DNA of 64,000 nucleotides. Origin: an uncultured Ectothiorhodospiraceae bacterium. Its GTDB lineage: Bacteria > Pseudomonadota > Gammaproteobacteria > UBA6429 > Thiohalophilaceae. The stretch lies in the NCBI GenBank assembly GCA_947260005.1, contig CAMYOL010000026.1, positions 62,001 to 126,000 on the forward strand. The letters are read 5' to 3'. The position numbers and the translations under genes were made by a program. Numbering within the stretch: position 1 is the first letter of the stretch; every line of letters begins with the position of its first letter. The notes beneath the pieces were generated by a model, which had not been told where the DNA came from, did no database searches, and saw only the letters and a list, made by a program, of their open reading frames with translations. Shown here in pieces: positions 20,401 to 44,700 of this stretch.

Positions 20401-22648
20401 TGTCGTCGACGCTCGGGTGATGCTTTTTGCGAAAACGAACTAGCAACCATCTCGAGACGATAACGAAAAAAAGAATTCCAACCAAAATGGTGATTATAGC
20501 CTTTAATGGACTGTCTGAAAAATAATACCCTAAACGCGACCGTAAACCGGCATTACCGATATAAAATGCCGGGGCTGATTCAAAGTGTTGTAGATCCTGA
20601 CTGTCCGGATGCCAGAGCAACATGCCGCCCGTCAGTTTTCCCCAGGTACTATGTTCGATTAAGGTCGCTAAGCCTGTTGCTAGATCTCTGGACTCAATGG
20701 CCGATACGATAAGCACACTTCGTCCCTGTTTATAAGGTGATTCGAACTGAAATAAAATTAACCCATTATCCAGACCACTACTATATTGGACAATATCTTG
20801 CGACTGTTCTTCTTGTTGTGATTGATTTGTAAACCAGTTGGTTAGTGCAGCAAATGTACTTTTTGTTTCTGCTGTACCTTGCGATACAATAGTTGAAAGA
20901 GGGTCGGAGAGTCCCTCTGGAACAATATTTTTGTGAATTAGAGATAAGCTTTTTTCACGTCCGATAATAATTAGATGGTCGTGCTTATCGTTTATTTCTC
21001 TACCAATTTCAGCATTTAATAAGGGACGGTTAGCAGTCTGAGCTAATTTAGCCATTAATATCCAGGCAGAAGAGATCGTTGCACTATCGGTTTCAGTAAT
21101 CTGTATTGAAACGTCAGAATTATTATGATTCATCGTATAAGGAAAACCTGTTCTGCTAATTAATTCTAAGTCAGGCAATTTTGCAAAACTAGCAACACTA
21201 TCCATTTTGAAGTACGAATCGTCAAACAATGTAACCAGCAAATTATCGGTAAATAATGGTTGACACTCTCCGCCTCTGTTTGTAGGCAACATACTGGGCC
21301 GGAAGTCTATTTCATTCCAACCGGGTTGCAGACTGGAGATAAGAAACTTAATTACATAATCATAATAAACAACACCATGAGGTTCGGTCATATGTACGGC
21401 ATGCTCAAATCGTCCATTTAAGAACACATTTAAGGTTGATTGAGGATCAATGCCTGCACCATAAGCCAGATGTAAATGCATAGCTAATGTCTCATCGCTG
21501 GCTGCAAATAGATCCGGTGCAACCCAGAAACGAATTTGTACTGGTGCTGGATACATGCCTTTTAGTGTTTTAGTCTTATAATTAAACTTAGTAAAATGAT
21601 ATATTTTCTCTGGAGTAATAGCATGAGGTCGCTGATAACCAGGACGGTCTTGAATTATCGCATCTTTGATTAAAACATATTTTTGAGCAGGCAATTTATG
21701 GCCGCGAATAGACATCACCTCAGCAGCAAGCTGCATATCGGCTTCTGTTATTCCAGATATTAGCAATATAAAACGGGATGGATCTTTCTCCTGAGGAAAG
21801 ATTCCAATATATGAACCTTTTATTTGTTCCAGCACTCCTGGAGCAACCAGTCCTTTTAGCTGTTCACGTGTTCCGATTAAAACACTGTCTTGACCAGTTA
21901 AAGGCTTCCAGTCTAAGCCTGGAAAATTTAGCTTAGAACTAGCGTTACGATTGCTTCGGCTGACTACTTGATGAGAAACAACGAGTGGTACATAGTCTAA
22001 TAATAATGCTGCGCCCTGGGCGACTAATGAGCCTGTGGCCAGAGTTTCATCGCTGGGATCATCAGACACCGTTAATATTGTCAATTGGTAGTCAGCCCAT
22101 AATTTTCGATCAATTAGATCAGGCAGACTGTTTAATCGAAAATCTAAAGGTTTTGTTTTCGCCTTGAAAGTAATGATTGATTTTTCGGTGTTTATTTGAG
22201 TCCATAATTCGGGTGATGAGGGGTCTTCGCATGAATCGGTATAATGTTGTGCAACCCCTAAGGTCAATTTGTTATATCCGCTATTCAGTAACGTTGATGG
22301 TAAGCGGACGCGAATACGTCCTTCAGGGCTGCGAGCTCGTAATGAGACTTGAGCTATAACTACATCATTAAGAGAAACCGTTAACTGTGACCGAGGTACC
22401 AGGGAAATAGAATTTGTATATTGTAACTCCAGTGTTGCTTCCTCTACCAGCATTCTGGCAGAGAGGGGCACACCGAAACTAAATTCACTTTGAGCACTGC
22501 GTAAGATGACCGATGTATCTGTGGCCATCAGCTCCTTTAAGTGAACCCTATAATTACCCTCATTTTTTTCTGTGTTATTAGCTGATACTGAAATTTGAGG
22601 TACACATATTAAACTTATAAATAGAATAATGAGTTTTCGACTCATCAT
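20393..22648 (-). CDS. bcsB: Cellulose synthase regulatory subunit BcsB
   Basis: 751 aa; signal peptide, paired carbohydrate-binding/flavodoxin-like layout, C-terminal TM; between bcsZ and bcsA with short overlaps. Confidence 0.9.
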   Translation of the reverse strand: MMSRKLIILFISLICVPQISVSANNTEKNEGNYRVHLKELMATDTSVILRSAQSEFSFGVPLSARMLVEEATLELQYTNSISLVPRSQLTVSLNDVVIAQVSLRARSPEGRIRVRLPSTLLNSGYNKLTLGVAQHYTDSCEDPSSPELWTQINTEKSIITFKAKTKPLDFRLNSLPDLIDRKLWADYQLTILTVSDDPSDETLATGSLVAQGAALLLDYVPLVVSHQVVSRSNRNASSKLNFPGLDWKPLTGQDSVLIGTREQLKGLVAPGVLEQIKGSYIGIFPQEKDPSRFILLISGITEADMQLAAEVMSIRGHKLPAQKYVLIKDAIIQDRPGYQRPHAITPEKIYHFTKFNYKTKTLKGMYPAPVQIRFWVAPDLFAASDETLAMHLHLAYGAGIDPQSTLNVFLNGRFEHAVHMTEPHGVVYYDYVIKFLISSLQPGWNEIDFRPSMLPTNRGGECQPLFTDNLLVTLFDDSYFKMDSVASFAKLPDLELISRTGFPYTMNHNNSDVSIQITETDSATISSAWILMAKLAQTANRPLLNAEIGREINDKHDHLIIIGREKSLSLIHKNIVPEGLSDPLSTIVSQGTAETKSTFAALTNWFTNQSQQEEQSQDIVQYSSGLDNGLILFQFESPYKQGRSVLIVSAIESRDLATGLATLIEHSTWGKLTGGMLLWHPDSQDLQHFESAPAFYIGNAGLRSRLGYYFSDSPLKAIITILVGILFFVIVSRWLLVRFRKKHHPSVDDNA

Positions 22649-25014
22649 GCTGACTCCCTGATAATATCTGTGGTCTTGACTACCTGATTTTTAAGTATTT
22701 TATCTGTATGTAAATTGTTTAGAATATTAACTGTTTCTGGGGTATTACTCTTAGTATTTTTAGGTTTCCATAATGATGCCACGAATTGACTCAAAGGGTT
22801 TATTAAAAATTTGAGGTGTCCAAAACTATGTCTTATTCCAATTTTCAACAGAAAACCTAATGCACGAAAAGCGCCAATTGAATGTTGACGACGCTTCAAA
22901 CTCTCTTTCAAGAGAGTGCTGTTCCCGAATACCAGAGCAACGATTTCCCGCCGTTCAGTCAAATTGTGTGGATTAAACTCCAGGCCAATCAACATACGTT
23001 TGTTTTTAACTTTTGGGATATCGGTTATCACACGCTGGATTCGTGTATGGAGTCGACTTGTACGGGATAGTGCTTTATTGTTCAGCATCAATTCAATCTC
23101 GGTATTAGATGAGAGACTTAATGCCTCTGAAGCCGGAGCATAGACACCGACACCCGTGGCTGAAACGTCAACGACTTCACAAGGTATCTTAATATTATCC
23201 AGTATTAAATGAGCATGTAAATTCATGGGTATGTGGATACGCGGATTTTGTCGACGTTGACGCCGCTCAAACAAGGCACCTAGCGCACCAAACAACAGAA
23301 TAAGATTGAAAGTCGCCCAGGCACCGGTGATGATTGCCACATCCTGTTGCAATGGGTAATTAATATAGCGAAAGGTTGCTGCCGATATACAGACCAAAGT
23401 AATGGTAATTAATATATAAAAAGGAATGGCCAAAGAAGAAATAAAATCTTTTTCCAGGTGTTCGCCTTTTGGGGTTACGTTAAACTGCGGCGCGTGTGGA
23501 TTTCGAAATACCTTGGCAATCGCGACCAATGAAAATATCGATTGCATTGTTTCGTAAAGTTCCGAGATAAATGGCCATCGTGTTTTTCCAAATAAAAAAT
23601 TTGACAATAGAATGGATGCCAATACATGCGGTAAGGCATAAAAGAAAAATTCCTGCAGGTTGGCTGCGTAAATCTGTAGCCCAAACAATAAAAAGGCAGC
23701 TGGAGCCAGTAAAAAAATGGTTCGGGCAAAAGGAAAAAACCAAAAAAATGAGCTGCTGGTATAGGCGAGTCTTTGGTTAAAGCTTAAGTTTTTCATCAAC
23801 CAGGGGTTTTTGAGTAAAAATATTTGTACCATACCTTGCGCCCAACGAACACGCTGTAAGATAAAACCACTGAATGTTTCAGGTTGTAACCCTGCAATGA
23901 GGGGTTCCCCTAAATAAATGCTTCGATAGCCTTTTTCATGTAAACCAAGTGCGGTTTCGGCATCTTCAGTAATTGTTTGACCGCTGATCCCACCATTTTC
24001 CTCCAGGTAACAGCGGCGTAGCAATGCCGCAGAACCACAAAAGAAAGAAGCATTCCAAAAATCCAGACCATGCTGGATAACCGTGTAAAACATTTCATTT
24101 TCACCCGGCATTTGTTCGAAGGTATCTAGATTACGTTCAATCGGATCTGGGTTGATAAAAAAGTGTGGTGTCTGAACTAAAAATAACTTTGGATCTTGCA
24201 CAAAAAAACCAATTGTTTTCTGTAAAATATCTACGGTTGGTACATGGTCAGCATCCAGAATCAGGATGATTTCGCCCTTTGAATGTTTCAATGCAGAATT
24301 AACATTACCTGCTTTGGCATGCTCATTTTTATCTCGAGTAAGATAGGTCGCTCCGAGATTTTTACAAAGTTCCTGTAGTTCTCGATGTCGTTGCCAGGCC
24401 TCTGCAGATTTTTCAGGGTCGCTGTCTGCGCGTTTTTGAACAGTACCACCATCATCTAATAAGTACACGTTTAGTTTTTCAGCTGGATAATTTACTTGCG
24501 TTGCCGCCATTAATGTAATTTCCAGTAATTTCGCATCTTCGTTGTAACTCGGTATCATGATGTCTACGGTTGGATAGTCTTTGGGATCCGCAGGTAATGG
24601 TAGGGGTTTGCGTTTTAATGGTGAGATATTAACGAAGGCGCCCAATAAATAGATGATTATCCCATAGACTTCTGCTGCATACAGTAATAGCGCCGCCGCA
24701 AAACTGAACGGATCGGCATATTCAATTGTTGTAAATGTACGCCAGAAAAAATAACGCATTGTAATAAAAACTGCACCAGCAATAACAAAGGTGCGTAAAT
24801 AAGACATTAATTGCGGTTTTTGACTATCTTGAAATCGGCCGCGTGTCGCCACCCATAATAACAATATCAAACAAATTACTACTATTGCCTGAGTATTGAG
24901 ATGAACCGGGATTGATGCCAGATACAAAAATAGAATACCAGCGGTTAACCACAGCAAACGAGTTGGGTGGTATAAAACTGATGTCAGGACTGAGTAAAAG
25001 CGAGTCAATATCAT
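22645..25014 (-). CDS. bcsA: Cellulose synthase catalytic subunit BcsA with PilZ domain
   Basis: 789 aa; GT2 motifs (DDGG, DADH, TEDAETAL, QRVRWAQGM), PilZ region with DVSATGVG after an arginine-rich RRQRR motif. Confidence 0.95.
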   Translation of the reverse strand: MILTRFYSVLTSVLYHPTRLLWLTAGILFLYLASIPVHLNTQAIVVICLILLLWVATRGRFQDSQKPQLMSYLRTFVIAGAVFITMRYFFWRTFTTIEYADPFSFAAALLLYAAEVYGIIIYLLGAFVNISPLKRKPLPLPADPKDYPTVDIMIPSYNEDAKLLEITLMAATQVNYPAEKLNVYLLDDGGTVQKRADSDPEKSAEAWQRHRELQELCKNLGATYLTRDKNEHAKAGNVNSALKHSKGEIILILDADHVPTVDILQKTIGFFVQDPKLFLVQTPHFFINPDPIERNLDTFEQMPGENEMFYTVIQHGLDFWNASFFCGSAALLRRCYLEENGGISGQTITEDAETALGLHEKGYRSIYLGEPLIAGLQPETFSGFILQRVRWAQGMVQIFLLKNPWLMKNLSFNQRLAYTSSSFFWFFPFARTIFLLAPAAFLLFGLQIYAANLQEFFFYALPHVLASILLSNFLFGKTRWPFISELYETMQSIFSLVAIAKVFRNPHAPQFNVTPKGEHLEKDFISSLAIPFYILITITLVCISAATFRYINYPLQQDVAIITGAWATFNLILLFGALGALFERRQRRQNPRIHIPMNLHAHLILDNIKIPCEVVDVSATGVGVYAPASEALSLSSNTEIELMLNNKALSRTSRLHTRIQRVITDIPKVKNKRMLIGLEFNPHNLTERREIVALVFGNSTLLKESLKRRQHSIGAFRALGFLLKIGIRHSFGHLKFLINPLSQFVASLWKPKNTKSNTPETVNILNNLHTDKILKNQVVKTTDIIRESA

Positions 25015-27272: not shown

Positions 27273-27773
27273 TCAGAACCACTGGATTTTGAAATAGTCC
27301 GACAGCTGATATTCGTTTCGTTTTTTGTTTGGTATCCAGTCAGTATCATCATATGTGCCAAACACCTTATCCCAGAAACTGAAGGTTATTCCAAAGTTGT
27401 GATGCCACATTTTTTCCTTGTGATGTAGGTGGTGTACCGGTTTCTTTAACCAGAATACCAAATCGGGATTATCATGTTGTACCTGGTGAGCATAGGCCGC
27501 AATACAAGCATATATAAAGCCACCTAGAGCCCAGCCGATACCTGCCGCTACGGAATACAGGAACCCGAACCAGAGGAACGGAATCGTTGGTAAAAAATAA
27601 TCCAGGAATTCGCCCCACCATCCCTGACCGGTACCTTCTTTATGGTGCTCCAGGTGCTTCGTGCCCAGAACATAACGCGCATGCATCAATCGGTGGATCG
27701 TGTATTCCATAAAAGTACTGAACAGGAGTGCCAGTAGCAGTACAAAGAAAAAAATTAAAAAATCTTGAGTCAT
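27273..27773 (-). CDS. Sterol desaturase / fatty acid hydroxylase superfamily protein
   Basis: 166 aa; His clusters HRLMHARYVLGTKHLEHH, HQVQHDN, HHLHHKEKMWHHNFG. Confidence 0.85.
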   Translation of the reverse strand: MTQDFLIFFFVLLLALLFSTFMEYTIHRLMHARYVLGTKHLEHHKEGTGQGWWGEFLDYFLPTIPFLWFGFLYSVAAGIGWALGGFIYACIAAYAHQVQHDNPDLVFWLKKPVHHLHHKEKMWHHNFGITFSFWDKVFGTYDDTDWIPNKKRNEYQLSDYFKIQWF

Positions 27774-28110
27774 TGGAAATCCAGGAGTCAGTCCATACCC
27801 ATGAATAATTCATCTAGAATAGACTATTTGTAATAGTCTTGATGAGGCTAAAATGATACAACCATATACATTTAAGTTCAAATTCACACGACTTGTTTAG
27901 TTTGACAATATCAAGAATGAACATCCCCAGCCAGGCAGTTAGCTTAAATCTGAAGCGCTAAACCCCATAAATTGTATCTCTATTAAGCATGGAATATGTG
28001 ACTTACGGCATATAATTTTACTAGAAGCCCTGCTGCAATTTGATTCATTAGACTTATTATTTTATTTAGGGTATGAATAAACTATAAATCACAATTTTAA
28101 TTAGGTACTC

Positions 28111-29472
28111 ATGATGAGTAAACAAAGCAACATGGATAAGCAACCACTAATCACCCCATCAATGCCGGATGGTTTACCCCATTCCGCAAATCCGGCGGAA
28201 CAAAAAAATCAACGTGCCAATGTGATTGGTATTAAAAAGAAAATAGAGAAAAAAAATCAGTCACAGACGGGGCAAGCAAACGTTAATAAACTGGATCGTT
28301 GGTTTGTGAACCAGATCCTTGAAATGGTCGGTTACCCTGAATTGACGGTCATATTATGGGACGGCAAAGAATTTTATTCGCGCGGTGAACAGAATGTCCC
28401 AACCATGACGATATCAGATCGAGCCTGCTTGTTTCGGTTGCTGGTCAATCCTGAAATAAATTTTGGAGATTTATACAGCAATGGGCGCATACAATTTGAG
28501 GGGGATTTAGCTGCGTTTATATCTGATGTATTTAGTCGGATAACGGATTATGGTGTTGGTAATAAACTACACAAATTCTTCAGAGAATTTCTACATTTTA
28601 CCTTTGGAAATAGCCTGATCCGAGCTAAACAAAATATTTATCATCACTATGATCTAAGTAATCAATTTTATGAAATGTGGCTTGATAAAAGTGCCATGCA
28701 GTATACTTGTGCCTATTTTCCTGATTCCAAAATGACACTGGAGCAGGCCCAGGAGGCCAAATTACATCACATATGCCAGAAACTTCAATTAAAAGAAGGC
28801 GAGACAGTGATTGAAGCAGGGTGTGGTTGGGGCGGTTTGGCGCGTTTTATGGCCCAGCATTATGGTGTATCGGTAAAATCCTACAATATATCCAGGGAAC
28901 AAATTGCGTTCGCTCGTAACAAAGCAAATGACATGGGGCTGTCAGATAAAGTTGAATATATAGAAGATGATTATCGCAACATTGCTGGACAATGTGATGT
29001 GTTTGTATCCGTCGGCATGCTGGAACATGTTGGGTTAAAGAATTACAAAACACTGGGAAAGATCATTGATCGCACACTTAAGTCCGATGGCAGAGGATTA
29101 ATTCATTCAATTTCGCGTGATGAACCCGGTCAGGCGGGCACCTGGATTGAACAGCGCATTTTTCCGGGTGCCTATGCGCCTGCCCTGAGTGAGATCATGA
29201 CTCTATTTGAAAGCTATCAATTCTCAATCTGGGATATCGAAAATCTACGTTTGCACTATGCGAAAACGTTAGAGCATTGGCTTTTACGGTTTGAAGATCA
29301 CGTTGATGAAATAACAAATATGTTTGATGAGAGTTTTGTGCGTGCGTGGCGTCTTTATCTTTGTGGTTCAATTGCTTCATTTTTATCCGGTGCGAATGGA
29401 TTGCTGCAGATACAGTTCGCCAGGGGAAGCAATAATCAAGTTCCACCGTCGCGCCATTATTTGTACGAATAG
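28111..29472 (+). CDS. cfa: Cyclopropane-fatty-acyl-phospholipid synthase family SAM methyltransferase
   Basis: 453 aa; HHYDLSNQFYEMWLDKSAMQYTCAYF, VIEAGCGWGGLARFMA, SVGMLEHVG, WIEQRIFPGAYAPALSEI. Confidence 0.94.
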   Translation: MMSKQSNMDKQPLITPSMPDGLPHSANPAEQKNQRANVIGIKKKIEKKNQSQTGQANVNKLDRWFVNQILEMVGYPELTVILWDGKEFYSRGEQNVPTMTISDRACLFRLLVNPEINFGDLYSNGRIQFEGDLAAFISDVFSRITDYGVGNKLHKFFREFLHFTFGNSLIRAKQNIYHHYDLSNQFYEMWLDKSAMQYTCAYFPDSKMTLEQAQEAKLHHICQKLQLKEGETVIEAGCGWGGLARFMAQHYGVSVKSYNISREQIAFARNKANDMGLSDKVEYIEDDYRNIAGQCDVFVSVGMLEHVGLKNYKTLGKIIDRTLKSDGRGLIHSISRDEPGQAGTWIEQRIFPGAYAPALSEIMTLFESYQFSIWDIENLRLHYAKTLEHWLLRFEDHVDEITNMFDESFVRAWRLYLCGSIASFLSGANGLLQIQFARGSNNQVPPSRHYLYE

Positions 29473-29909: not shown

Positions 29910-31118
29910 ATGACAAGAAATGTTGTAATTACTGGTTTGGGGGCAGTTTCAGGTTTCGGGCTCTCTGTCGATGCATTCTGGCAGGGGCTTAGCTCAGGAA
30001 CATCTGCAATTAAAGCACTTAATGGTGAGGCACAGGGTACATCGATTAAAGTCGGTGCCACCGTTCCTGAATATGATTCCACTCAACACTTTTCATCGTC
30101 TGATCAAACGCTCTTTGATAGATTCTCGCAGTTTGCGGTTATTGCCGCACGTGAAGCAATTGCTGATGCCGGCTTAACGGTGGGTGACGATATCGTCTCT
30201 CGTGCTGCCGCAATCATTGGTACCGGTTGTGGTGGGAAACAAACAGATGAAGAAACCTATTTACAGTTGTACAAAAACCAACGTAAACGCGTACACCCAC
30301 TGACCATCCCACAAGGAATGCCAAGTGCCGCCGCTAGCGCGGTAAGTATGCAGTTAGGCATCATGGGCCCGGTGTTTTCGATAACCAGTGCTTGTGCTTC
30401 TGGTGCGCACGCTATCGCTCAGGGTTATAGCATGATTAAATCCGGTATGGCTGAAGTCGTTGTCGTTGGGGGCACCGATACTCCATTTACCTATGGATTA
30501 TTAAAATCATGGGAGGCCTTACGTGTTTTAACGGACGACACGTGTCGCCCATTTAGCAAAGATCGACGTGGTCTTGTCCTGGCAGAAGGGGCAGGAATGA
30601 TCGTGCTTGAATCTGAACAGCATGCTAAACAACGTAATGCAAAAGTGTATGCACAGTTAACAGGTTGTGGAATGACCGCCGATGCCGATCATGTTACTCG
30701 ACCCAATCAGACCAGCATTATAGCCGCCATCGCTGCAGCATTGCAGCAAGCGGGCTTGACCACTTCAGATGTTGATTATATTAATGCACATGGTACCGGG
30801 ACACAGTTAAATGACCGAATTGAGACCTCGGCCATCAAGGACGTTTTTGCTGAACACGCGATGAAGCTTGCGGTGTCCTCTACAAAATCCATGCATGGGC
30901 ATGCGATGGGGGCTTCCAGTGCACTGGAATTTATAGCAACGGTTTTAACCTTATCTAACCAATTGATTCCGCCTACCGCAAATTATACCGAAGCCGATCC
31001 TGAGTGCGATCTTGATTACGTACCCAATGAATCAAGATCCAAAACAATCGATACCGCTCTATCGAATTCATTTGCTTTTGGCGGGCTCAACACCGTATTA
31101 GCTTTATCACGGTATTAA
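29910..31118 (+). CDS. Beta-ketoacyl-ACP synthase (FabF/KAS II-like)
   Basis: 402 aa; TSACASGAHAI (Cys), NAHGTGTQLND (His), KSMHGHAMGASS (His); starts 6 nt after the ACP stop. Confidence 0.94.
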   Translation: MTRNVVITGLGAVSGFGLSVDAFWQGLSSGTSAIKALNGEAQGTSIKVGATVPEYDSTQHFSSSDQTLFDRFSQFAVIAAREAIADAGLTVGDDIVSRAAAIIGTGCGGKQTDEETYLQLYKNQRKRVHPLTIPQGMPSAAASAVSMQLGIMGPVFSITSACASGAHAIAQGYSMIKSGMAEVVVVGGTDTPFTYGLLKSWEALRVLTDDTCRPFSKDRRGLVLAEGAGMIVLESEQHAKQRNAKVYAQLTGCGMTADADHVTRPNQTSIIAAIAAALQQAGLTTSDVDYINAHGTGTQLNDRIETSAIKDVFAEHAMKLAVSSTKSMHGHAMGASSALEFIATVLTLSNQLIPPTANYTEADPECDLDYVPNESRSKTIDTALSNSFAFGGLNTVLALSRY

Positions 31119-31273
31119 AAATAAGCTTTTTTAGAGATTAGAACGTCAGGGCTTGTATCTATGCTTCTTACCTTGTTAGGTTTATATTTAAATAGCTAGA
31201 GTTTGTATAATAACCATACTTAGAATGTCTATTTAAAGTCTATTCTAAACCGATTGATTGATGGAGTGGGTTA

Positions 31274-32911
31274 ATGGAAAAGCTGGACAATGTAACTTTC
31301 AAAATTGCCAACAAAGACTGGGAGTTTGAACAAATACATTCACTTAACTATCGAACCTTTGTCGAAGAGATACCACAACATCAAAAAAATGAATCAAAAC
31401 AGCTTGTCGACAGGTTTCATGATCAAAACGATTATATTATCGCGATTTATAATCACAATATAATCGCTATGGTCGCTATTCGAGATCAACGTCCTTTTTC
31501 ACTCGACCAGAAACTTCCTGAACTTGATACATATTTACCTCGTTATCAATCGATTGTCGAAATACGTTTGCTGGTGATAGAAAAAGAATATCGCAAAAGC
31601 GCGGTATTCATGAACTTGATGATTCGCTTATTGGAAGAATGTAATAACCGGGAATATGATATTGCTATTATTTCAGGTACGACTCGTGAATTAAAACTCT
31701 ACCAGCTTTTAGGATTTAAACCTTTTGCCCATCCTGTTGGTGCAGAAGATGCGCTTTATCAACCCATGTATATTGATAGAGAAACCTATCAACAGGTAGA
31801 GACTTACGAGAGAATATTTAAAAAATTCGGATACTTATCTTCCACTCAGGAGGTGTTTAATTATTTACCCGGGCCGGTGAGTTTTCGACCCGAGCTAAAA
31901 GATCATTTTACAAAATCACCCATTTCTCACAGAAAAAATTTATTCGTGGAAGATTTTAATAACTTAAGAGCCTTGCTTTGCCAACAACTTAATGCTGATT
32001 ATGTACAGGTCGTGACAGGTTCAGGAACCCTGGCAAATGACATTGTCGCTCAATATATAAAAACGTTAGACCAGCCGGGCCTGATACTTTGTAATGGTGA
32101 GTTTGGCAGACGACTTACCGATCATGCGAACCGAATTAATCTCGATTTTGAGGTCGTCGCCCTGGAAGATGGGGAAGGGTTTAGTGAAGCCTATCTGGAA
32201 AAAATATTTAAAGAGCATGACTCTATTGGATGGCTTTGGATGGCTCACTGTGAAACATCCACGGGTGTACTAAACCCCTTGCAATCAATAAACAAATTAT
32301 GTCTTCACAACGGGATCAAGCTATGTGTGGACGCCATCAGCTCTGTGGCTTGTGTGCCGGTATCTTTTAAAAATGTCTGGATGGCGACGGCGGTGAGTGG
32401 TAAAGGTATCGGTGCGTTACCTGGATTGTCGCTTGTATTCCATCAGGAAGATATATTATCTGGCTGGAAGGATTTACCTCGATATATGGACCTGGCGAAT
32501 TATGAGAAAAACAAAGGACTGCCATTTACCATATCATCGAATGTCGTCTATGCACTTATATGTGCCTTAGATAATATCGATTGGCAGGCGCATTTCCAAC
32601 ATACTAGTGAAACGTCTAAACGATTAATTGAACAAATTCTCGACCGTGACCTTACCCTGGTCGCCGATACACATTATCAATCGCCACATGTGATTACGAT
32701 TAAACTATCGCCTGCAATATCTTCAGTTCTTATTGGGGAATATATGGAATCAAAAGGATTTCAATTAAGCTACAATAGCTATTACCTTCGTAAATCAAAT
32801 TATTTACAAATATGTTTGATGGGAAATTTTAGTCCCCCTTCTAAACAATTAATTAATCAGCTTGCGGATAAATTACAATCGATGGAGCTGGCTTCAGGTA
32901 TCGCATCTTAA
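31274..32911 (+). CDS. Fusion of GNAT/N-acyl amino acid synthase-like acyltransferase and class-V PLP aminotransferase
   Basis: 545 aa; N-terminus FVEEIPQHQKN...IVEIRLLVIEKEYRKSAVFMNLMIRLLEEC...YQLLGFKPFA is GNAT/FeeM-like. C-terminus VVTGSGTLANDIV, HCETSTGVLNPL, CVDAISSVACVPV, SGKGIGALPGLSLVF is class-V AT. Confidence 0.85.
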   Translation: MEKLDNVTFKIANKDWEFEQIHSLNYRTFVEEIPQHQKNESKQLVDRFHDQNDYIIAIYNHNIIAMVAIRDQRPFSLDQKLPELDTYLPRYQSIVEIRLLVIEKEYRKSAVFMNLMIRLLEECNNREYDIAIISGTTRELKLYQLLGFKPFAHPVGAEDALYQPMYIDRETYQQVETYERIFKKFGYLSSTQEVFNYLPGPVSFRPELKDHFTKSPISHRKNLFVEDFNNLRALLCQQLNADYVQVVTGSGTLANDIVAQYIKTLDQPGLILCNGEFGRRLTDHANRINLDFEVVALEDGEGFSEAYLEKIFKEHDSIGWLWMAHCETSTGVLNPLQSINKLCLHNGIKLCVDAISSVACVPVSFKNVWMATAVSGKGIGALPGLSLVFHQEDILSGWKDLPRYMDLANYEKNKGLPFTISSNVVYALICALDNIDWQAHFQHTSETSKRLIEQILDRDLTLVADTHYQSPHVITIKLSPAISSVLIGEYMESKGFQLSYNSYYLRKSNYLQICLMGNFSPPSKQLINQLADKLQSMELASGIAS

Positions 32912-32913
32912 TG

Positions 32914-33474
32914 TTATTTTAAAGCGCAATGCGGCCAACCAAATCCCCATCGCCAGGGCAAGAAACTACAAGGTTTACCACCGATACGTATCGTTTGATA
33001 CATTAGTTCTGCTGTAGCATTTACTTGTGATTCAATAGTCGCCTGCGATTGATTGAATTTTTCTGCCAGGCGTTTCGAATTATTTTTACCCCAGTCTTTG
33101 ACACATTGACGTAAAATTCTATCGGATTTAAGGCGTTTGTTAAAACCATCTTCGGTTTCACCTTGCCAATAATCTTTGTCATGACTGGTACAACAATACT
33201 CCCAGGGTGGACGTTCACCAAAATGTTGTTTAAAGTCAGGAAAAGCATCTGCAAAGCTATTCCAACCTGCAGAAAGTCCTCCGCTACAACCGTCAGAGAC
33301 AAATTTTACTTTTTTAGATTTAGGGTCTGCCTGTATTTTTGCTAGCTGTTCCAGGCTCCATTCTTCCAGATCACGGTTCATTTTTAGGATTACATTTTCC
33401 TGTTCGCCATATGAAAAATGACTAAAACAAAAGAGGGGGAGTAAAACGAAAAAATTTAACAAAAGTTTATTCAT
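32914..33474 (-). CDS. Secreted phospholipase A2-like protein
   Basis: 186 aa with signal peptide; VSDGCSGG and EYCCTSHDKDYWQGETEDGFNKRLKSD, a CCxxHDxxY PLA2-type core. Confidence 0.65.
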   Translation of the reverse strand: MNKLLLNFFVLLPLFCFSHFSYGEQENVILKMNRDLEEWSLEQLAKIQADPKSKKVKFVSDGCSGGLSAGWNSFADAFPDFKQHFGERPPWEYCCTSHDKDYWQGETEDGFNKRLKSDRILRQCVKDWGKNNSKRLAEKFNQSQATIESQVNATAELMYQTIRIGGKPCSFLPWRWGFGWPHCALK

Positions 33475-33632: not shown

Positions 33633-34223
33633 ATGGAGGTAATTCTCATCGAAGGAATTGATCTATATATTGTACTGGATTTATTTCTCGCTTATTTAAT
33701 AGGTAATCTAAGTCTCAGTTATGCCTGGGTGAAGATTAAACTAAAGAAAGATCTCAGAAAGATCGGTAGTGGCAGTCTTGGTGCCACAAATGCCTCACGT
33801 GTACTTGGGAAACCTGGCTTTATCGCAACCTTCCTGTTTGATGTTCTGAAAGGCGCTCTCGCGATTTTATTGCTTGGCTTATTTACTGATAATAGTTTTA
33901 TTATCAGTCTTGCTGCCGTTTTTGTCGTAGCAGGTCATGTATGGCCAGTTATCTTTGGTTTCCATGGTGGAAAAGGGCTCAGTACAGTATTGGGCGCATT
34001 TCTTGCCATTGATCCTTATATCATTTTTCTGTTTTTTGCAGTAGCGACACTTATTTATTTAATTAAACGGAATAAGATATTTGCTGGTGTGATTGGATTC
34101 CTGGTCTTACCACCATTATTAATCGCGTTTGGCTATAGTTATGAGTTTTATATTCCCCTTATCTTGGCAGAGCTTATTATAATATGGGCTCACCGTACTA
34201 ACATTAAAGAGCAGTTTGCTTAA
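33633..34223 (+). CDS. plsY: Acyl-phosphate:glycerol-3-phosphate acyltransferase PlsY-like
   Basis: 196 aa; LAYLIGNLSLSYAWVK, KIGSGSLGATNASRVLGKPG, VAGHVWPVIFGFHGGKGLSTVLG. Confidence 0.93.
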   Translation: MEVILIEGIDLYIVLDLFLAYLIGNLSLSYAWVKIKLKKDLRKIGSGSLGATNASRVLGKPGFIATFLFDVLKGALAILLLGLFTDNSFIISLAAVFVVAGHVWPVIFGFHGGKGLSTVLGAFLAIDPYIIFLFFAVATLIYLIKRNKIFAGVIGFLVLPPLLIAFGYSYEFYIPLILAELIIIWAHRTNIKEQFA

Positions 34224-35206: not shown

Positions 35207-36631
35207 GTGAAGATTAAATCAGAACTAACAGGATTGATGTGCAACCTGACAGCTGGATTTATGTTGTCGATTTTCAGGAATGTAGAGAAACGGTATTTTC
35301 ACACAGGCATCGATCAGGTGGTGTTATTGGTTTTTACTCTTAGTGTATTAACTTTCATTATTACACTTTTTACAAGTTTACCTGAACCTGAGTTTAGTCT
35401 AATGGGGCTTGCTGACGTGGCATCACAAGTTAGCTTTATTATGCTTGCTTCATACATATTATCGAAGTTACTTAAACAGGAACCAGATTTAATAATGGTA
35501 ATACTATTGTCTATCTGGCCATGGTTGTATCTGACCTGGGCATTTTTTGGAGAGGGTGAAAATTTTAATAGTTGGTTATTTTCTGGAAATAAAAAAATAT
35601 TATATATCGTGTACATTACTTATTTTTTTGCTGCCGTGTGTGCAGCAATTATCCGTCTTGATTATAAAAAGATAAAATATTATATTTTAGTTCCGATTGT
35701 CTGTTTGGTCGGCATTTTCATTCCCCTTCATTATATTTATACAGGTCAATTTTGGCATCTTGCTTATGATTATGACGATAAGTTGTCAAGTTATAAAAAC
35801 ATCAATCAGGAGGATACCTATTATAAACAATTTGAATTCATGGCTGATTTAAAGAATACGCTACTTCCAACGAGAAAAGATAAAACCGATTTATATTTTG
35901 TAGGGTTTGGTAGTTACGCATATGAAGATGTTTTTATGAAAGAAATATCTTATATAAAAGAACTTTTTGACAACAGGTTTAATACGAAAGGTCGTTCTGT
36001 CGCGTTAATTAATAATTACAAAACGGTTGATGAGGTACCGATTGCATCAAGGACAAACCTCGGCATGGTGCTGCGGACATTTTCAAATGTAATGGATAAA
36101 GAAAACGATATTGTTTTCATCTATTTGACCAGTCATGGTTCTGATAAAAATTATCTTTCGGTAAATCTGGAGCCACTTCGGTTAAATTCGATACGGCCTG
36201 GAGATTTAAAATTCTATCTGGATTATGTTGGTATCAAGAATCGTATCATTCTGGTGTCTGCCTGTTATTCTGGTGGTTTTATTGAGCCATTAAAAGATGA
36301 ATTCTCAGTGATAATGACGGCCTCTTCATCTGACCGCACATCTTTTGGCTGTGGAAGTAAAAGTGAATTCACTTATTTTGGACATGCAATTTTTCGTGAA
36401 CAGCTTAATCAGAAATTTAATTTTATCACAGCTTTTCAAGATGCTATTGCTGCGATTAATGAACGCGAGAAGCTTGAAAAATTAAAATCATCACAACCAC
36501 AGTTGTATGTTGGCAGTCAAATTGGATTGAAATTAGAGAAGCTAGGGCAGGATTTGGAAGGAACATTTAATAGTAATAAAAACGAAAAATTAGTTGAATC
36601 GGAAAAATCCATGCCATTGAATAAAAAATAA
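35207..36631 (+). CDS. Multi-TM protein with C13-family (caspase-like) cysteine peptidase domain
   Basis: 474 aa; about 5 TM segments, then IVFIYLTSHGSDKNYLSV (His) and IILVSACYSGGFIEPL (Cys). Confidence 0.85.
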   Translation: MKIKSELTGLMCNLTAGFMLSIFRNVEKRYFHTGIDQVVLLVFTLSVLTFIITLFTSLPEPEFSLMGLADVASQVSFIMLASYILSKLLKQEPDLIMVILLSIWPWLYLTWAFFGEGENFNSWLFSGNKKILYIVYITYFFAAVCAAIIRLDYKKIKYYILVPIVCLVGIFIPLHYIYTGQFWHLAYDYDDKLSSYKNINQEDTYYKQFEFMADLKNTLLPTRKDKTDLYFVGFGSYAYEDVFMKEISYIKELFDNRFNTKGRSVALINNYKTVDEVPIASRTNLGMVLRTFSNVMDKENDIVFIYLTSHGSDKNYLSVNLEPLRLNSIRPGDLKFYLDYVGIKNRIILVSACYSGGFIEPLKDEFSVIMTASSSDRTSFGCGSKSEFTYFGHAIFREQLNQKFNFITAFQDAIAAINEREKLEKLKSSQPQLYVGSQIGLKLEKLGQDLEGTFNSNKNEKLVESEKSMPLNKK

Positions 36632-38015: not shown

Positions 38016-38639
38016 ATGATAATTAAATTCTGGTTTTTTCAACTTTTACTTATATCCTGTTTATTCAAGGTATCTTCGGCCTCTGCGATTATGATCGATT
38101 TCCTGCCTACGAGTTCATCCGTTGAGGTCGGTGCGGCCTTTGAAGTTGATGTTGTTATATCGGATTTGGCTGCAGCAGGAGAGATCGTATCCGCTTATGA
38201 TCTCAATGTCTCTTACGACGCTACTAATTTATTAGCGACCGGCGTGACTTTTGGTAGCTACCTGGATGATCCCTTTTTCCCTGGTTTTACCCTACAAGAT
38301 TCGGTTTTGACAACAGCTGGACTAGTTAATTTTTCTGAGTTGTCATTTCTTTCTGATGCGGAGTTGGCCGCACAACAACCAGATAGTTTCACGCTTGCAA
38401 CACTTTCTTTTGAGGCTTTATCGGTTGGTTCTAGTTCATTACTTTTCGTGCCTGATCCATTTTTTGGTATTGATATAAAAGGCAATTTATTTAGCGTTTT
38501 GCCAGTAACGACTGGAACAGTAAGTGTCATGGTGAATGCGCCTGCTGTTGCTATTCCGGAGCCAAGTTCGCTAGCCCTTTTTGCATTGTCATTTTTATTT
38601 ATCGGTATGTCCCGTAGAACGACGAAGAATATTATGTAA
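38016..38639 (+). CDS. Cohesin-like domain protein with PEP-CTERM sorting signal
   Basis: 207 aa; signal peptide; SVEVGAAFEVDVVISDL...VSAYDLNVSYDATNLLATGVTFG (cohesin-like); C-terminus IPEPSSLALFALSFLFIGMSRRTTKN. Confidence 0.88.
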   Translation: MIIKFWFFQLLLISCLFKVSSASAIMIDFLPTSSSVEVGAAFEVDVVISDLAAAGEIVSAYDLNVSYDATNLLATGVTFGSYLDDPFFPGFTLQDSVLTTAGLVNFSELSFLSDAELAAQQPDSFTLATLSFEALSVGSSSLLFVPDPFFGIDIKGNLFSVLPVTTGTVSVMVNAPAVAIPEPSSLALFALSFLFIGMSRRTTKNIM

Positions 38640-38752: not shown

Positions 38753-41700
38753 ATGAAACGGATGTTATGTCGTGCCTTATTTATCACTTTCTTGATGGGG
38801 TTGTTCAACCCAATAGCATCGGCAGTTCCCTGTGACGTTGACGCGGATTCAGATATTGATCGCAATGATATCAATGCAATATTTGCTGTCCGTAATACCC
38901 CTGCAGATGGTCCTGATGATCCCCGTGACGCAGACGGTGATGGTATTATCACTGTAAATGACGGGCGGCAGTGTGTATTGCAATGTACCTTGCCACGCTG
39001 TGCCATTGTTGATGTTGATCCTAATGATGTCGATAATGACAATGATGGTTTTACCGAGAATCAAGGCGATTGTAACGACGAAAATCCAGATATTAATCCC
39101 AACGCTACGGAAATACCCGGAAATGGCATCGATGAAAACTGTGATGGCATCGATCCTCCGCTTGAAATTGCTTTAATTGAAGTCATTCAAGATCCTCTCG
39201 ATCTGGGTGAAGTTTTTGTTGGCGGTTCTGCGAATGCCCAATTAGCAGTGCGCAATACAGGTGAGGCAACACTGGTCATCGAGAGTGTTGCAACCAGTGG
39301 CGCACCATTTAATGTATTTCCTCCTACTAGCTTAACGATTGAACCCGGCGATTCGACTCAAGTTATAGATGTTGGATTTAGTCCCACTAGTGTGGGCGAA
39401 TTCACGGGCAATATTACCTTCATCAGTAATGCCGATAATCAAAATCCATTGGTAGTGACGGTGACCGGCCGTGCTGTTGAACCGACGTCAGAACAGGTTC
39501 CCGATATCAGCACGCTACCCAGTTTGGAATATGGCAGTGTTGAGCAAGGTGCCAGTGTTGAAAAAATACTAACTGTTAGTAACAACGGGACTGCACCACT
39601 GACGGTTAGTAATGCTACCATCGATAATCCCGCTTTTGAGATTGTCACAACGGCTAGTGATACATTGCCCTTCGTCATAGAATCAGGGCAAAGCAAAAAT
39701 ATTACGGTACGTTTTACAGCACCGACTGGGAATACCAGCCCTGATTTAAGCGCCACTTTGACTCTTGAAACTGATGATGCTGTTGTAATACTGACTGATG
39801 TGTCTTTAACTGGGGCAGTGATCCCGCTGCAAGCGCCATTAGAAAATAATCCAGTTATACGCGCGCAAGTGAATGGCCTGATTAGCCCCGCTAATTGTAC
39901 AAGTGTTAGCGGTGAAGTGGAGTTCAATGCAGATGCTACGGGTGCGGAGACCTTGCAAGTGATCATACAAGATCAAGGTGGTGTGACTGCGACTAGCGGT
40001 ACTCTGGCAAGCCCCAATGGGGTAGGGGTTGTGGCGTTTAATGGTATCGATGCCTGCGGTTTAGCCGATGGGGTGATGGAGGTCAGTGTTGCAGTTGATC
40101 GCAGTGGCACGGCTTTGCCTGAATTTATTGGTGCACCTGCGGTCATTAATAGCTCCAATTTTCCTGCTCCAATTTTAAATCCCTTACCGCCAGTAACCTC
40201 GCTTGATGAAATTGAGGTCTGTGGTAGCGCAGCGTCTAATTCAACTGTGCGTGTTGAGGGGGGTACTTATGTTGTCTGGACAGCACTGGATGCGAGTACT
40301 ACACAATTTTGCCTAAATGTGCCATTGCGTCAAAATACGCAGAATATCTTAATAGCATCAGCTATTGATAATAATGCGGCTGCGCCCAGACCTATTGCTT
40401 ATGCCACGCCGGAGTCCATCGTTCATTTCGATCCTTCTGAAATTTTAATTACGGATGTCCAGGTTCGTCCACTGACTGAAGCTGAGATCGCAACCTTAGT
40501 GAGCAATGGTGTGATCGATCTCGATAATCCGGATAACTTCAATGTGTCGATGTTTACTGTAGTATTTACTATTGGTTCGTTCCAAATACCGATATCGATT
40601 ACGCAACCGGTTGCCGTCTCTCGAATGACGGGAAGTGTCAGTTATGGTGGGGGTAGTCCGGTGTGGTCGACTGGATTCGGCGGTGGAGGGTCGGCTGGAG
40701 GATGCCGAACCAATTGTGGCCAGATCTTTGTCTACCGGGCACCATCAGGGCAAACGATTCCTGGTCTCATCATCATCGATGGGCGGATTAAGACGCTTAA
40801 GGAATTTTTCCAGGCGACCGTCGCGGTGTTTAATAATTCCGATTCGTTTGTGTTACAGGACATGCAAGCCAATATTGTGTTGCCGACAGGCTTAACTCCG
40901 TTCCGAGCGGGTTTAGGCACCGATGTCTCGACTATTAATACTGAAAGTGAGATTGATCATATTACGATTGGTGATGTGGGACCAGGAATTACTGGTGTTG
41001 GGCAATTTATCTTCCGTGGTGACAGCATTGGTACGCACAATATCAGTGTGAACTTTCACGGTTTTCTGACCGGAGGTGGCTTACCCGAACCGATCGCTGT
41101 AAGTAGTACAGCGCAGACTACGGTAGAGGTTCAGGGACCACCACGACTTGGTGTTGTGGTCCGACATCCTAGTGATCCGGCTGGGCCAGATGTTTTCGTC
41201 GGACAAATTTATGATTTAATTGTTGAAATCACTAATCAGTCAAATCGCCCCGCTTTATATACCAGTCTTGAATTGTTTGTTGGCGGTGGTGTTGAGTTAG
41301 TGGATGAAAACGGTGATCCCATACCCGATTCAAATGTACTGCGAACGATTGGCACCATCCCACCCGGGCGTACCGCACGTTTAGCCTATCGAGTACGCTC
41401 TTTCATTGAGGGTGAGATCATCGCCTGCCAGGGAATAGCAAGTGAAAATATTACACTCTCAGTTGATACCGGACCTGGTGGAACGGATTGTAATATTAAC
41501 AACATGTATCCGGCGCAGTTTGTGCCATTACCTGCCGATCTGCCACCGACGATTATTGGTATCAATCCGCTCAATGGTCAATACAATACTCCCGTCACCA
41601 CTTCAGTGGTTGCAACACTTACGCCACAATCGGCGTGTTTAACCGCTGACAGCTGGACCAATGTTGTTACGGAACCTATCGGTGGCAATCCCGCTAATGG

Positions 41701-44700
41701 TTTCGAAATTGTATCGGCGACTCGCACTGGAACTGGGACCTTTTATTTAGAAGAACTCAATGCATCCGGTGAACCTGTTCGCCATATCCCGACTGATCTG
41801 GTTACTGTCGATCCACCAGCAGGTGGCACCACCATCGCTGTGTTGCGATTAGGTTTAGCTGCACCTTTGAGTCAGACATTTCTCAGACCGAACACATCTT
41901 ATCGCGTTACTATGGTTGGAGGTGTTGGCGGAGTCTGTAGTGCAAGTTCCGGTGCGGAGATGCCGGAGTCATATAGTTGGACATTCAGTACAGCGCAGGA
42001 TTGTTCTGTTACAGGACCGATGGAACTGACTAGTATTGTACCTAACGATGGGTCAACTGATCAGCCACTGAATCGAAACATTGTATTGAATTTCAGTAAC
42101 CGAATTGATGCATCGAGTCTTCGTTTTGTGCCTGGTAACCTGGCTGCAAGCAGCTTTGGAGTATATGCAAACCCAACTATAACAGGTGATGATATCAGCG
42201 CAGAGGGCACAGCAATTCTTCGGGGCGGTGTGTTTAGTAATTTAGCCAGTACATTAACTTATTTCGCTCCCCAGAACTTGCCTGAAGATGCACAAGTTTA
42301 TGTACGACTGACTGATTCGGTACGTGATGTTTGCGGTAATCCATTACAAACCCCCCCCTCTGGTATCTTGCTAACAAGCTTCGCTACAGTTCCACCCGAT
42401 ACCACACCACCGCCCGCGCCTGTCGTGAATCCGGTTACAGCGCTAACCAATGACCAGAGCATTCTGATCACAGGTTCAGCAGAACCCTATAGCGTGGTTA
42501 CGATTACGGGTGGATTAACACCGGTCACAACAACGGCATCAGGGTCAGGATTATTCAGCGTATTCGTCCCACTCAATCAGAATGCGGATAACAACCTACA
42601 GGTGCAAACGAGTGATGCTGCAGGAAATACTTCACCTGTTGTGACGACCGACAGCAACGGTGCGTCGCTCACAGTCACCAATGCACCATTGGATTTTCCA
42701 ACGGTATTAACTACAGATATAAATATTATTTCAGAAGATGTAGTGCCCAACACCGTATCCGGTAATGTACTGAGTAATGACTTTGATCCGGATACCACCT
42801 TAACCGTAACCAATGCGGCATTACTACAGGGGACCGGTAGCTACGGTACCTTAACCATCAATGCTAGCGGTGCTTATACCTATACACTGGATAACAATAA
42901 TGCAGTCGTCAATGCGCTGACGACGGGCCAGTTACTTGAGGTGTATAACTATAATGCCAATGGTTCAAGTGCGACTCTGACCATTTATATCAATGGTATC
43001 GATGATGCGTCAGTGCTGATCGCGGACGTCGATAGCATTAGAGAAGATGCCGTACCCAATACCGTGTCGGGCAATGTGTTGGATAATGATATTGATACAG
43101 ATACATCGTTACTGGTTACTGATCCAAGGACACAAACTGAGCCCGAGGGCACGTTGGTGCTGGATGCTTCCGGCGCTTATACATTTACCCTGAACAATGC
43201 CGACCCATCAGTCGATTCTTTAGAGGATGGTGACACATTACAACTCGGTTATAGCTATACGGTCACCGGTGGTCTTACCAGTACCTTAACGATTACGATT
43301 ACTGGTGTGAGTGATGGAACCGTTAATATTAGTGGTGTATGGAATATTGCTACCACGGTTACGAATGAAAGTCCGGCTGGTTGTACGGGAGGGGTTGGCT
43401 CGGTAGGCGCTTCTGTGGTGACGATCGCCCAAACAGGGAATGCACTGGATATTAGAACGGTCAATAGTGACAACATAACAGGGACAATCAATACGACGAC
43501 CGGTGATTTTACGGCTGCCGGTTCAATCAATGGTGTTGAAGTCGATTTATCGAATCCAACCGATGATACTGCCTTTATAAATTGGGATGTCTCATCAAAT
43601 GCAACCGGTACTGGTGTAACAGCAAGCTCATTGTCCGGTTCGATCACGACTGTTGAAAGTGATGATGGTCTAACAACCTGTACCTTTACGGAGGACTTTA
43701 ACGGTACCTTTGTTTACCGGCATACAGGGACTGAGAATTACAGTGGCGTCTATGCCTTTGAATTCGCCGAGCGTATAGAAAGTAGCGATGGCACAACGAA
43801 TATTGATCGCTATGGCTTCCCGCTTGAACTTGAAATTAGTGGGTCGAGCCTCACCATTCATGTCCCCGATGAAGGCCCTGCTGGTGTAAACGACCGACTT
43901 ACATTCTCAAATCTTGTTTTTGAACCCACCACCGGTTACTTCAGTTTTGAGCTAGAAGAAATCGAACGCAATGATAACGAGCCTGCAGATGGGGTTATCG
44001 ATACATCGGATATAGCACGTTTTATGTTTTCTGGCATCTTTATGCGTGATCCCTCTGTAACGAATGGTGTGAATGGTGCACCGTTGGTCGTCATGACGGA
44101 CTATGGATATGAACGTTTCTATACCGGTGATGTCGATGATGCTACAGGTATACCTGTTATGGCTGAAAATATAGATTCATATGCCTATGGTAAACGCCTG
44201 GTCACGCAGGGTGTAACACGTACCATTCTGTTTGAGCGGGGTGATCAAACCGATGGCACGAGTATTCTCGTAGGTTTACAGAATCCACCATTGAGGCGTT
44301 TGGATCCAGCAACCAGTACACTCTATCTCGAAGTGCTGAATGGCGGCGGGACGGTATTATGTTCTGTACCGTATATCGGCGCGGTTGCAGGTGAGGGTCG
44401 TTATTTTGAGCAAATCAACATGGGTTTCTCAACCTTTGAACCCTTGGACCCTGATTTTAATTCACGGGCTTTCCGTGGTGACAATTACAGCTCGGTCAAT
44501 TGCGATGCCACAAATGATGGCGCTAACACGATTACAGATGGAGAGAATCTGACACTGCGGGTTGTTGATTCCGGGCCGGATGGTGTCCTTGGCGGTGGTG
44601 ACGATACACCGGTGACGATAGCGACAACCGGTACGGATGCCATCATCTATCCTGCTGAGGTGGTTGCTGCAGGTGAGCGCTTCACGGATACACCGAAAGT

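What the first reader, a model, noticed from the sequence alone, without database searches (positions are those of the whole stretch)
31274..32911. Fusion of a GNAT acyltransferase and a class-V PLP aminotransferase in one polypeptide
The first ~190 residues read as a GNAT/FeeM-like fold and residues ~200-545 as a class-V aminotransferase with a plausible PLP lysine (SGKGIGALPG). The fusion implies that amine generation and N-acylation may be coupled. Substrate is unknown; the AT part most resembles the alanine-glyoxylate / 2-aminoethylphosphonate group by motif.
Basis: partly seen in the sequence, partly recalled or inferred. Interest (0 to 1): 0.7.

Follow-up and report, generated by a model that had tools for sequence, protein, structure and literature searches.

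The report
Two-domain N-acyl serinol synthase fusion
The gene encodes a genuine fusion of an amine-making enzyme and a fatty-acylating enzyme, most likely a bacterial N-acyl serinol synthase of a kind already shown in other bacteria to make a signalling-like lipid; the new point is that its relatives in many phyla sit beside a dedicated phospholipid-type acyltransferase, which suggests the product is built into a membrane lipid.

Summary
The ORF at 31274-32911 (545 aa) is one polypeptide with an N-terminal GNAT domain (PF13444/FeeM, AHL-synthase-like fold) and a C-terminal class-V PLP aminotransferase (PhnW/AGT fold) with intact Lys377 and Asp353. The fusion is not unique: full-length relatives (40-48% identity) occur in at least ten phyla. 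The coupling idea (make an amine, then acylate it) is well supported, but the amine is very unlikely to be aminoethylphosphonate. No PEP mutase reaches cut-off in 18 fusion-bearing genomes, and the substrate Arg of PhnW/AGT is an invariant Gln. The literature gives the likely answer: a single PF13444 gene from Bacillus sp. 2_A_57_CT2, a close relative of B. firmus, makes N-palmitoyl serinol in E. coli. In three Cytobacillus firmus genomes here the only PF13444 protein is this fusion. So it is most likely an N-acyl serinol synthase: dihydroxyacetone (phosphate) to serinol (phosphate), then N-acylation. I found no description of the next point: in 55 of 82 loci, over seven named phyla, a distinct clade of PlsY paralogues lies beside the fusion, and the window's PlsY paralogue (33633-34223) belongs to it. 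This suggests a diacyl, amide-linked phosphatidic-acid-like lipid, which remains untested.

The parts
31274..32911 (+). GNAT / class-V aminotransferase fusion (545 aa), predicted N-acyl serinol (phosphate) synthase
31263..31266 (+). GGAG ribosome-binding-like site, 7 bases before the ATG
   Evidence: read directly
31274..31831 (+). GNAT N-acyltransferase domain (residues 1-186); invariant D46, N52, E96, R98, R107, Y143, Q163, M165
   Evidence: PF13444 and FeeM hits in 61/63 members; AF2 pLDDT 92, nearest long folds AHL synthases BjaI/TofI/LasI; residue counts
31859..32908 (+). class-V PLP aminotransferase domain (residues 196-545)
   Evidence: PF00266 in 61/63 members; best Foldseek matches, target TM-score 0.80-0.87, are AEP transaminase, AGT and related class-V enzymes
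32402..32404 (+). codon of Lys377, PLP Schiff-base lysine (SGKGIG)
   Evidence: invariant 63/63
32330..32332 (+). codon of Asp353, PLP pyridine-N aspartate
   Evidence: invariant 63/63
32807..32809 (+). codon of Gln512, at the place of the substrate Arg of PhnW/AGT (FR-I/V-G motif)
   Evidence: Gln in 63/63 fusions, Arg in 7 of 8 free-standing class-V ATs aligned
33633..34223 (+). PlsY paralogue (196 aa), predicted partner acyltransferase
   Evidence: PF02660 133.7 bits; belongs with the fusion-linked PlsY proteins, apart from the canonical PlsY of the same genome
29667..29903 (+). acyl carrier protein (78 aa, DSL motif), possible acyl donor; not conserved next to other fusions
   Evidence: PF00550 E 6e-15
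29910..31118 (+). FabF-like beta-ketoacyl-ACP synthase; not conserved next to other fusions
   Evidence: PF00109/PF02801

Best explanation
It is a bifunctional N-acyl serinol (phosphate) synthase. The class-V aminotransferase domain aminates the C2 ketone of dihydroxyacetone or, more likely, dihydroxyacetone phosphate to give serinol (phosphate). The fused GNAT domain then transfers a long acyl chain from acyl-ACP to that amine, giving N-acyl serinol (phosphate). In most lineages, including this one, a dedicated PlsY paralogue probably O-acylates the product to a diacyl, amide-linked analogue of phosphatidic acid. Shown here: architecture, intact PLP residues, family spread, PlsY linkage, absence of an AEP pathway. 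From the literature: one PF13444 gene of a close B. firmus relative makes N-palmitoyl serinol in E. coli. Inferred: that this gene is the same family, DHAP rather than free DHA, acyl-ACP as donor, and the PlsY step.
For: E. coli carrying the single hm-NAS gene of Bacillus sp. 2_A_57_CT2 or Desulfitobacterium hafniense DP7 makes N-palmitoyl serinol (PMC9605164). hm-NAS enzymes are PF13444 proteins (PMC9762135). That Bacillus is close to B. firmus (PMC3261151). In three C. firmus genomes (L071, L079, L084) and seven other Bacillales genomes the only PF13444 hit over cut-off is the fusion, in an open frame of 537-548 codons. MIBiG BGC0001683, the N-acyl serinol cluster of that strain, is the nearest known match of two phosphonate clusters, as expected if it holds a PhnW-like AT (PMC12795557). 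A DHAP-to-serinol-phosphate transaminase exists in nature (RtxA; PMC3222319). Gln512 replaces the PhnW/AGT Arg in 63/63 fusions. PlsY-like neighbour in 55/82 loci, forming one side of a branch (SH-aLRT 99) against the canonical PlsY of the same genomes.
Against: The sequence of the characterised gene could not be fetched; identity with this family is inferred from the PF13444 content of close relatives. My memory that Cohen et al. 2017 describe an aminotransferase-N-acyltransferase two-domain protein could not be checked (paper not held). The window protein is only about 44% identical to the C. firmus fusions, so the substrate may have shifted. Some fusion genomes (for example the congener G001, and G069, G073, G075) have one canonical PlsY only, so the PlsY step is not obligatory.
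Confidence: 0.72

Rival explanations
1. The AT domain works in 2-aminoethylphosphonate metabolism (PhnW/AepZ) and the product is an N-acyl aminoethylphosphonate or a phosphonolipid.
For: Best NCBIfam match is TIGR03301 PhnW-AepZ, which matches all 63 members; AEP transaminases are among the best folds, including the PntC-AEPT fusion 6pd1.
Against: 135 bits against a cut-off of 361; PEP mutase over cut-off in 0 of 18 fusion genomes and no hit in the own genome; PhnA over cut-off in 0 of 22 and PhnX in 4 of 22, not the own genome; phosphonate/carboxylate Arg replaced by Gln in 63/63.
Confidence: 0.06
2. An N-acyl amino acid or aminolipid synthase of OlsB/GlsB logic, in which the AT domain makes an alpha-amino acid that the GNAT acylates and the PlsY paralogue O-acylates.
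For: PF13444 is shared with OlsB/GlsB-type enzymes; the AT is AGT-like; pairing of N- and O-acyltransferase is the OlsB/OlsA design.
Against: The carboxylate-binding Arg is lost in 63/63; the own genome already has a separate OlsB-like gene beside an acyltransferase-like gene; OlsB-type enzymes take ready-made amino acids and need no AT (established knowledge).
Confidence: 0.12
3. Transamination happens on acyl-DHAP made by the PlsY paralogue (order PlsY, AT, GNAT), so free N-acyl serinol is only a by-product seen in E. coli. This is a variant of the best explanation with another order of steps.
For: The PlsY gene usually lies immediately upstream of the fusion, often overlapping its start by 4 bases.
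Against: E. coli makes N-palmitoyl serinol with the single gene (PMC9605164), so the PlsY paralogue is not needed first, unless host enzymes substitute.
Confidence: 0.1

Closest known systems
N-acyl serinol synthase (hm-NAS of Bacillus sp. 2_A_57_CT2 and Desulfitobacterium hafniense DP7; MIBiG BGC0001683)
   Same: PF13444 acyltransferase; close relatives of the Bacillus strain carry this fusion and no other PF13444 protein
   Different: Window protein is about 44% identical to the C. firmus fusions; gammaproteobacterial host; PlsY paralogue downstream instead of immediately upstream; no LtaS-like gene directly after the fusion
2-aminoethylphosphonate transaminase PhnW / AepZ (TIGR03301; PDB 1m32, 7e7g, 9kk8)
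   Same: Fold, PLP Lys and Asp, overall AT sequence
   Different: Substrate Arg replaced by Gln512; scores far under the family cut-off; fused to GNAT; no phosphonate pathway
FeeM N-acyl amino acid synthase and LuxI-type AHL synthases (BjaI, LasI, TofI)
   Same: GNAT domain of the long-chain acyl branch: FeeM model hits 61/63, query TM-score 0.71-0.79 to AHL synthases
   Different: Stand-alone enzymes, no fused amine-making domain
RtxA N-terminal domain of Bradyrhizobium elkanii
   Same: DHAP to serinol phosphate transamination, fused to a second enzyme domain (PMC3222319)
   Different: Second domain is a dihydrorhizobitoxine synthase; sequence not compared here
PntC-AEPT fusion (6pd1) and Mycoplasma penetrans MetRS (9os7)
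   Same: Class-V AT with a domain of another enzyme at its N-terminus
   Different: Their N-terminal domains are nucleotidyltransferase-like (PMC13215547), not GNAT

Membership tests
N-acyl serinol synthase (hm-NAS) | PF13444 acyltransferase domain | tested here: met
   32.9 bits against cut-off 22.4
N-acyl serinol synthase (hm-NAS) | Same protein family as the characterised Bacillus sp. 2_A_57_CT2 gene | tested here: inconclusive
   Gene sequence not available; its close relatives C. firmus have only this fusion as PF13444 protein
N-acyl serinol synthase (hm-NAS) | Active aminotransferase domain able to make serinol | tested here: inconclusive
   Lys377 and Asp353 intact in 63/63, Gln512 fits a substrate without carboxylate; activity not assayed
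N-acyl serinol synthase (hm-NAS) | Product N-acyl serinol | not testable with these tools
   needs expression and mass spectrometry
PhnW/AepZ AEP transaminase | Score over TIGR03301 cut-off (360.8 bits) | tested here: not met
   134.9 bits
PhnW/AepZ AEP transaminase | Substrate-binding Arg (FRIG motif) | tested here: not met
   Gln512, 63/63
PhnW/AepZ AEP transaminase | Phosphonate pathway in the genome (PEP mutase or PhnX/PhnA) | tested here: not met
   own genome: none over cut-off
GNAT superfamily / FeeM branch | FeeM or GNAT profile and fold | tested here: met
GNAT superfamily / FeeM branch | Canonical R-x-x-G-x-G/A acyl-CoA loop | tested here: not met
   R107 invariant but the glycines are not kept (RKSAVF); the loop is diverged across the family
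PlsY (window 33633-34223) | PF02660 over cut-off and conserved PlsY residues | tested here: met
   133.7 bits; S46, N53, R56, H102, G112, G113 shared with canonical PlsY
PlsY (window 33633-34223) | Equivalog cut-off for G3P 1-O-acyltransferase (TIGR00023, 137.2 bits) | tested here: not met
   125.3 bits; separate group in the tree

The most novel reading that the evidence does not exclude
The fusion and its PlsY paralogue form a widespread, undescribed pathway for a membrane lipid: PlsY-type O-acylation plus GNAT N-acylation of serinol phosphate gives a 2-amido analogue of phosphatidic acid that bypasses PlsC and feeds head-group enzymes (LtaS-like in Bacillales, a CDP-alcohol phosphatidyltransferase in one Geobacteraceae locus). 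The N-acyl serinols known as gut signalling lipids would then be intermediates or breakdown products of that lipid.
Probability: 0.33. Interest if true: 0.8.

Novelty: new member of a known kind. Interest (0 to 1): 0.5.

Why it matters
N-acyl serinols are known from human commensals as GPR119 ligands that affect GLP-1 and blood glucose (PMC11271093, PMC9605164), but I found nothing on their role in the producing cell. The family seen here is far wider than gut bacteria (Gammaproteobacteria, Verrucomicrobiota, Kiritimatiellota, Geobacter relatives, cable bacteria, Bacillales and others). Its conserved PlsY partner gives a testable answer: they may be parts of a sphingolipid-like, amide-linked membrane lipid. 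It also corrects the automatic reading of these proteins as AEP transaminases.

Tried and rejected
A single-sequence scan of genome contigs and viral contigs with P0001 found nothing; the alignment scan worked. phmmer of the GNAT part alone found no clear PDB relative. 9os7 ('Methionine--tRNA ligase') looked like a GNAT-AT chain by length, but the paper shows a nucleotidyltransferase-like N-terminal domain. An AEP/phosphonate pathway was tested and rejected. ACP and KAS as conserved partners were rejected: no other fusion locus has a KAS directly upstream. A PlsY signature motif (GSGS versus GSGN) was rejected: Bacillales paralogues keep GSGN; the separation rests on the tree instead. The first PlsY neighbour count (46 loci) was too low because of overlapping ORFs and was redone on six frames (55 of 82). 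Cohen et al. 2017 and Dutta et al. 2026 could not be read.

Full report
Observation. The ORF 31274-32911 (+) encodes 545 residues. Pfam places PF13444 and FeeM in the first 154 residues and Aminotran_5 at 216-494. The AlphaFold2 model built on 63 homologues has mean pLDDT 91, with a weak linker near 180-191. The window lies in a 3.7-Mb, 81-contig genome, G000. Its congener G001 appears to be the same genome as G074, behind locus L037, whose record title names an uncultured Ectothiorhodospiraceae bacterium.

Family. A scan of GTDB species genomes with an alignment of four homologues matched 277 relatives; the 80 best are fusions at 40-48% identity. Both scan motifs lie in the GNAT part, yet every kept relative continues into the AT part; ranking by E-value favours full-length hits, so this is not a census. 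Sampling found the fusion in 3/369 Gammaproteobacteria and 27/249 Bacilli, while more Gammaproteobacteria hold only a free-standing AT. The family is therefore widespread but patchy.

Catalytic sites. In 63/63 members Lys377, Asp353, His219, Arg220 and Arg280 of the AT and Asp46, Asn52, Glu96, Arg98, Arg107, Tyr143 and Gln163 of the GNAT are invariant. The canonical GNAT RxxGxG loop is diverged, but the whole-domain profile and the fold remain: the nearest folds by coverage of the query are the AHL synthases BjaI, LasI and TofI. The AT is nearest to AEP transaminase, AGT and related class-V enzymes. At the position of the substrate Arg of those enzymes (FR-I/V-G; role of this Arg from established knowledge of PhnW and AGT structures) all fusions have Gln512, while 7 of 8 free-standing class-V ATs aligned have Arg. 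That argues for a substrate without a carboxylate or phosphonate at that place.

Not AEP. PEP mutase is over its cut-off in none of 18 fusion genomes and has no hit in the own genome. PhnA is over cut-off in none of 22, and PhnX in 4 of 22, not the own genome.

Link to N-acyl serinol. Literature held here reports that E. coli with one hm-NAS gene from Bacillus sp. 2_A_57_CT2 or Desulfitobacterium hafniense DP7 makes N-palmitoyl serinol (PMC9605164), that hm-NAS enzymes are PF13444 proteins (PMC9762135), and that this Bacillus is close to B. firmus (PMC3261151). Of 12 Bacillales genomes searched with PF13444, ten have one hit over cut-off and it is the fusion frame; one has a hit below cut-off and one none. 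The ten include three C. firmus genomes. The N-acyl serinol cluster of that strain is the nearest MIBiG match of two phosphonate clusters, at low similarity (PMC12795557), which fits a PhnW-like AT. From memory, unverified: Cohen et al. 2017 describe the serinol enzyme as an aminotransferase-acyltransferase protein. A precedent for DHAP to serinol phosphate is RtxA (PMC3222319).

PlsY partner. On six-frame search 55 of 82 loci have a PlsY-like gene next to the fusion, usually directly upstream and often overlapping; four of the 27 others are cut off by a contig end. The linked loci are in Bacillota, Verrucomicrobiota, Kiritimatiellota, Thermodesulfobacteriota, Pseudomonadota, Chloroflexota and Gemmatimonadota. 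By a rough estimate (two PlsY genes among some 4000) chance would give well under one. The linked PlsY proteins and the canonical PlsY of the same genomes are the two sides of one branch (SH-aLRT 99; a quick tree with several long branches, the window's among them, so caution is due). The window's PlsY, separated from the fusion by one convergent gene, falls with the linked group; the genome has another, canonical PlsY. In 25 Bacillales loci a sulfatase-fold, LtaS-like gene follows the fusion directly. Some fusion genomes have only a canonical PlsY, so the partner is common but not obligatory.

Mechanism proposed. AT: DHA(P) plus an amino donor to serinol (phosphate). GNAT: acyl-ACP to N-acyl serinol (phosphate). 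PlsY paralogue: acyl-phosphate to the free hydroxyl, giving a diacyl amide lipid. The first two steps rest on the literature and homology, the third on gene order and phylogeny only. The phosphate is suggested, not shown: PlsY acts on glycerol 3-phosphate, and DHAP is the commoner metabolite.

Verdict. A real fusion, probably a new member of the N-acyl serinol synthase kind. The AEP or amino-acid reading is disfavoured. The PlsY link is the part worth following.

Noticed in passing
window 32914-33474 (-): Secreted protein with a CCTSHD motif and a weak match to prokaryotic phospholipase A2 (E 0.17), convergent with the fusion and lying between it and the PlsY paralogue.
   Followed up: partly
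window 16854-25014 (-): Apparent cellulose synthase operon (glycosyltransferase with a PilZ-like C-terminus, BcsB-like, cellulase-like and BcsC-like proteins), judged by eye from the translations.
   Followed up: no
window 38016-38639 and 38753-46195 (+): A PEP-CTERM sorting-signal protein (TIGR02595 over cut-off) followed by a 2480-aa secreted repeat protein.
   Followed up: no
window 35207-36631 (+): Membrane protein with a peptidase C13 (caspase-like) domain, E 1.9e-20.
   Followed up: no
window 27273-29472: Fatty acid hydroxylase and cyclopropane-fatty-acid-synthase-like methyltransferase upstream of the ACP/KAS pair: a local cluster of lipid genes.
   Followed up: no
G000:C49:46840-47175 (L142): The same genome holds an OlsB-like ornithine N-acyltransferase beside an acyltransferase-like gene, so an ornithine-lipid route is probably separate from the fusion.
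   Followed up: partly
Bacilli genomes (for example G526, G515, G480): A second, more divergent group of the fusion (430-540 bits against 645-780 for the main group) in Bacilli; may have a different substrate.
   Followed up: no
L097, gene directly upstream of the fusion: CDP-alcohol phosphatidyltransferase 14 bases before the fusion in a Geobacteraceae MAG (PF01066), in keeping with a phospholipid product.
   Followed up: partly
L046, L056, L059: In two Dadabacteria loci and one Desulfobacterota locus the fusion has a thiol-oxidoreductase-like (DCC-type, by eye) gene before it and a membrane protein of one family after it, with no PlsY.
   Followed up: no
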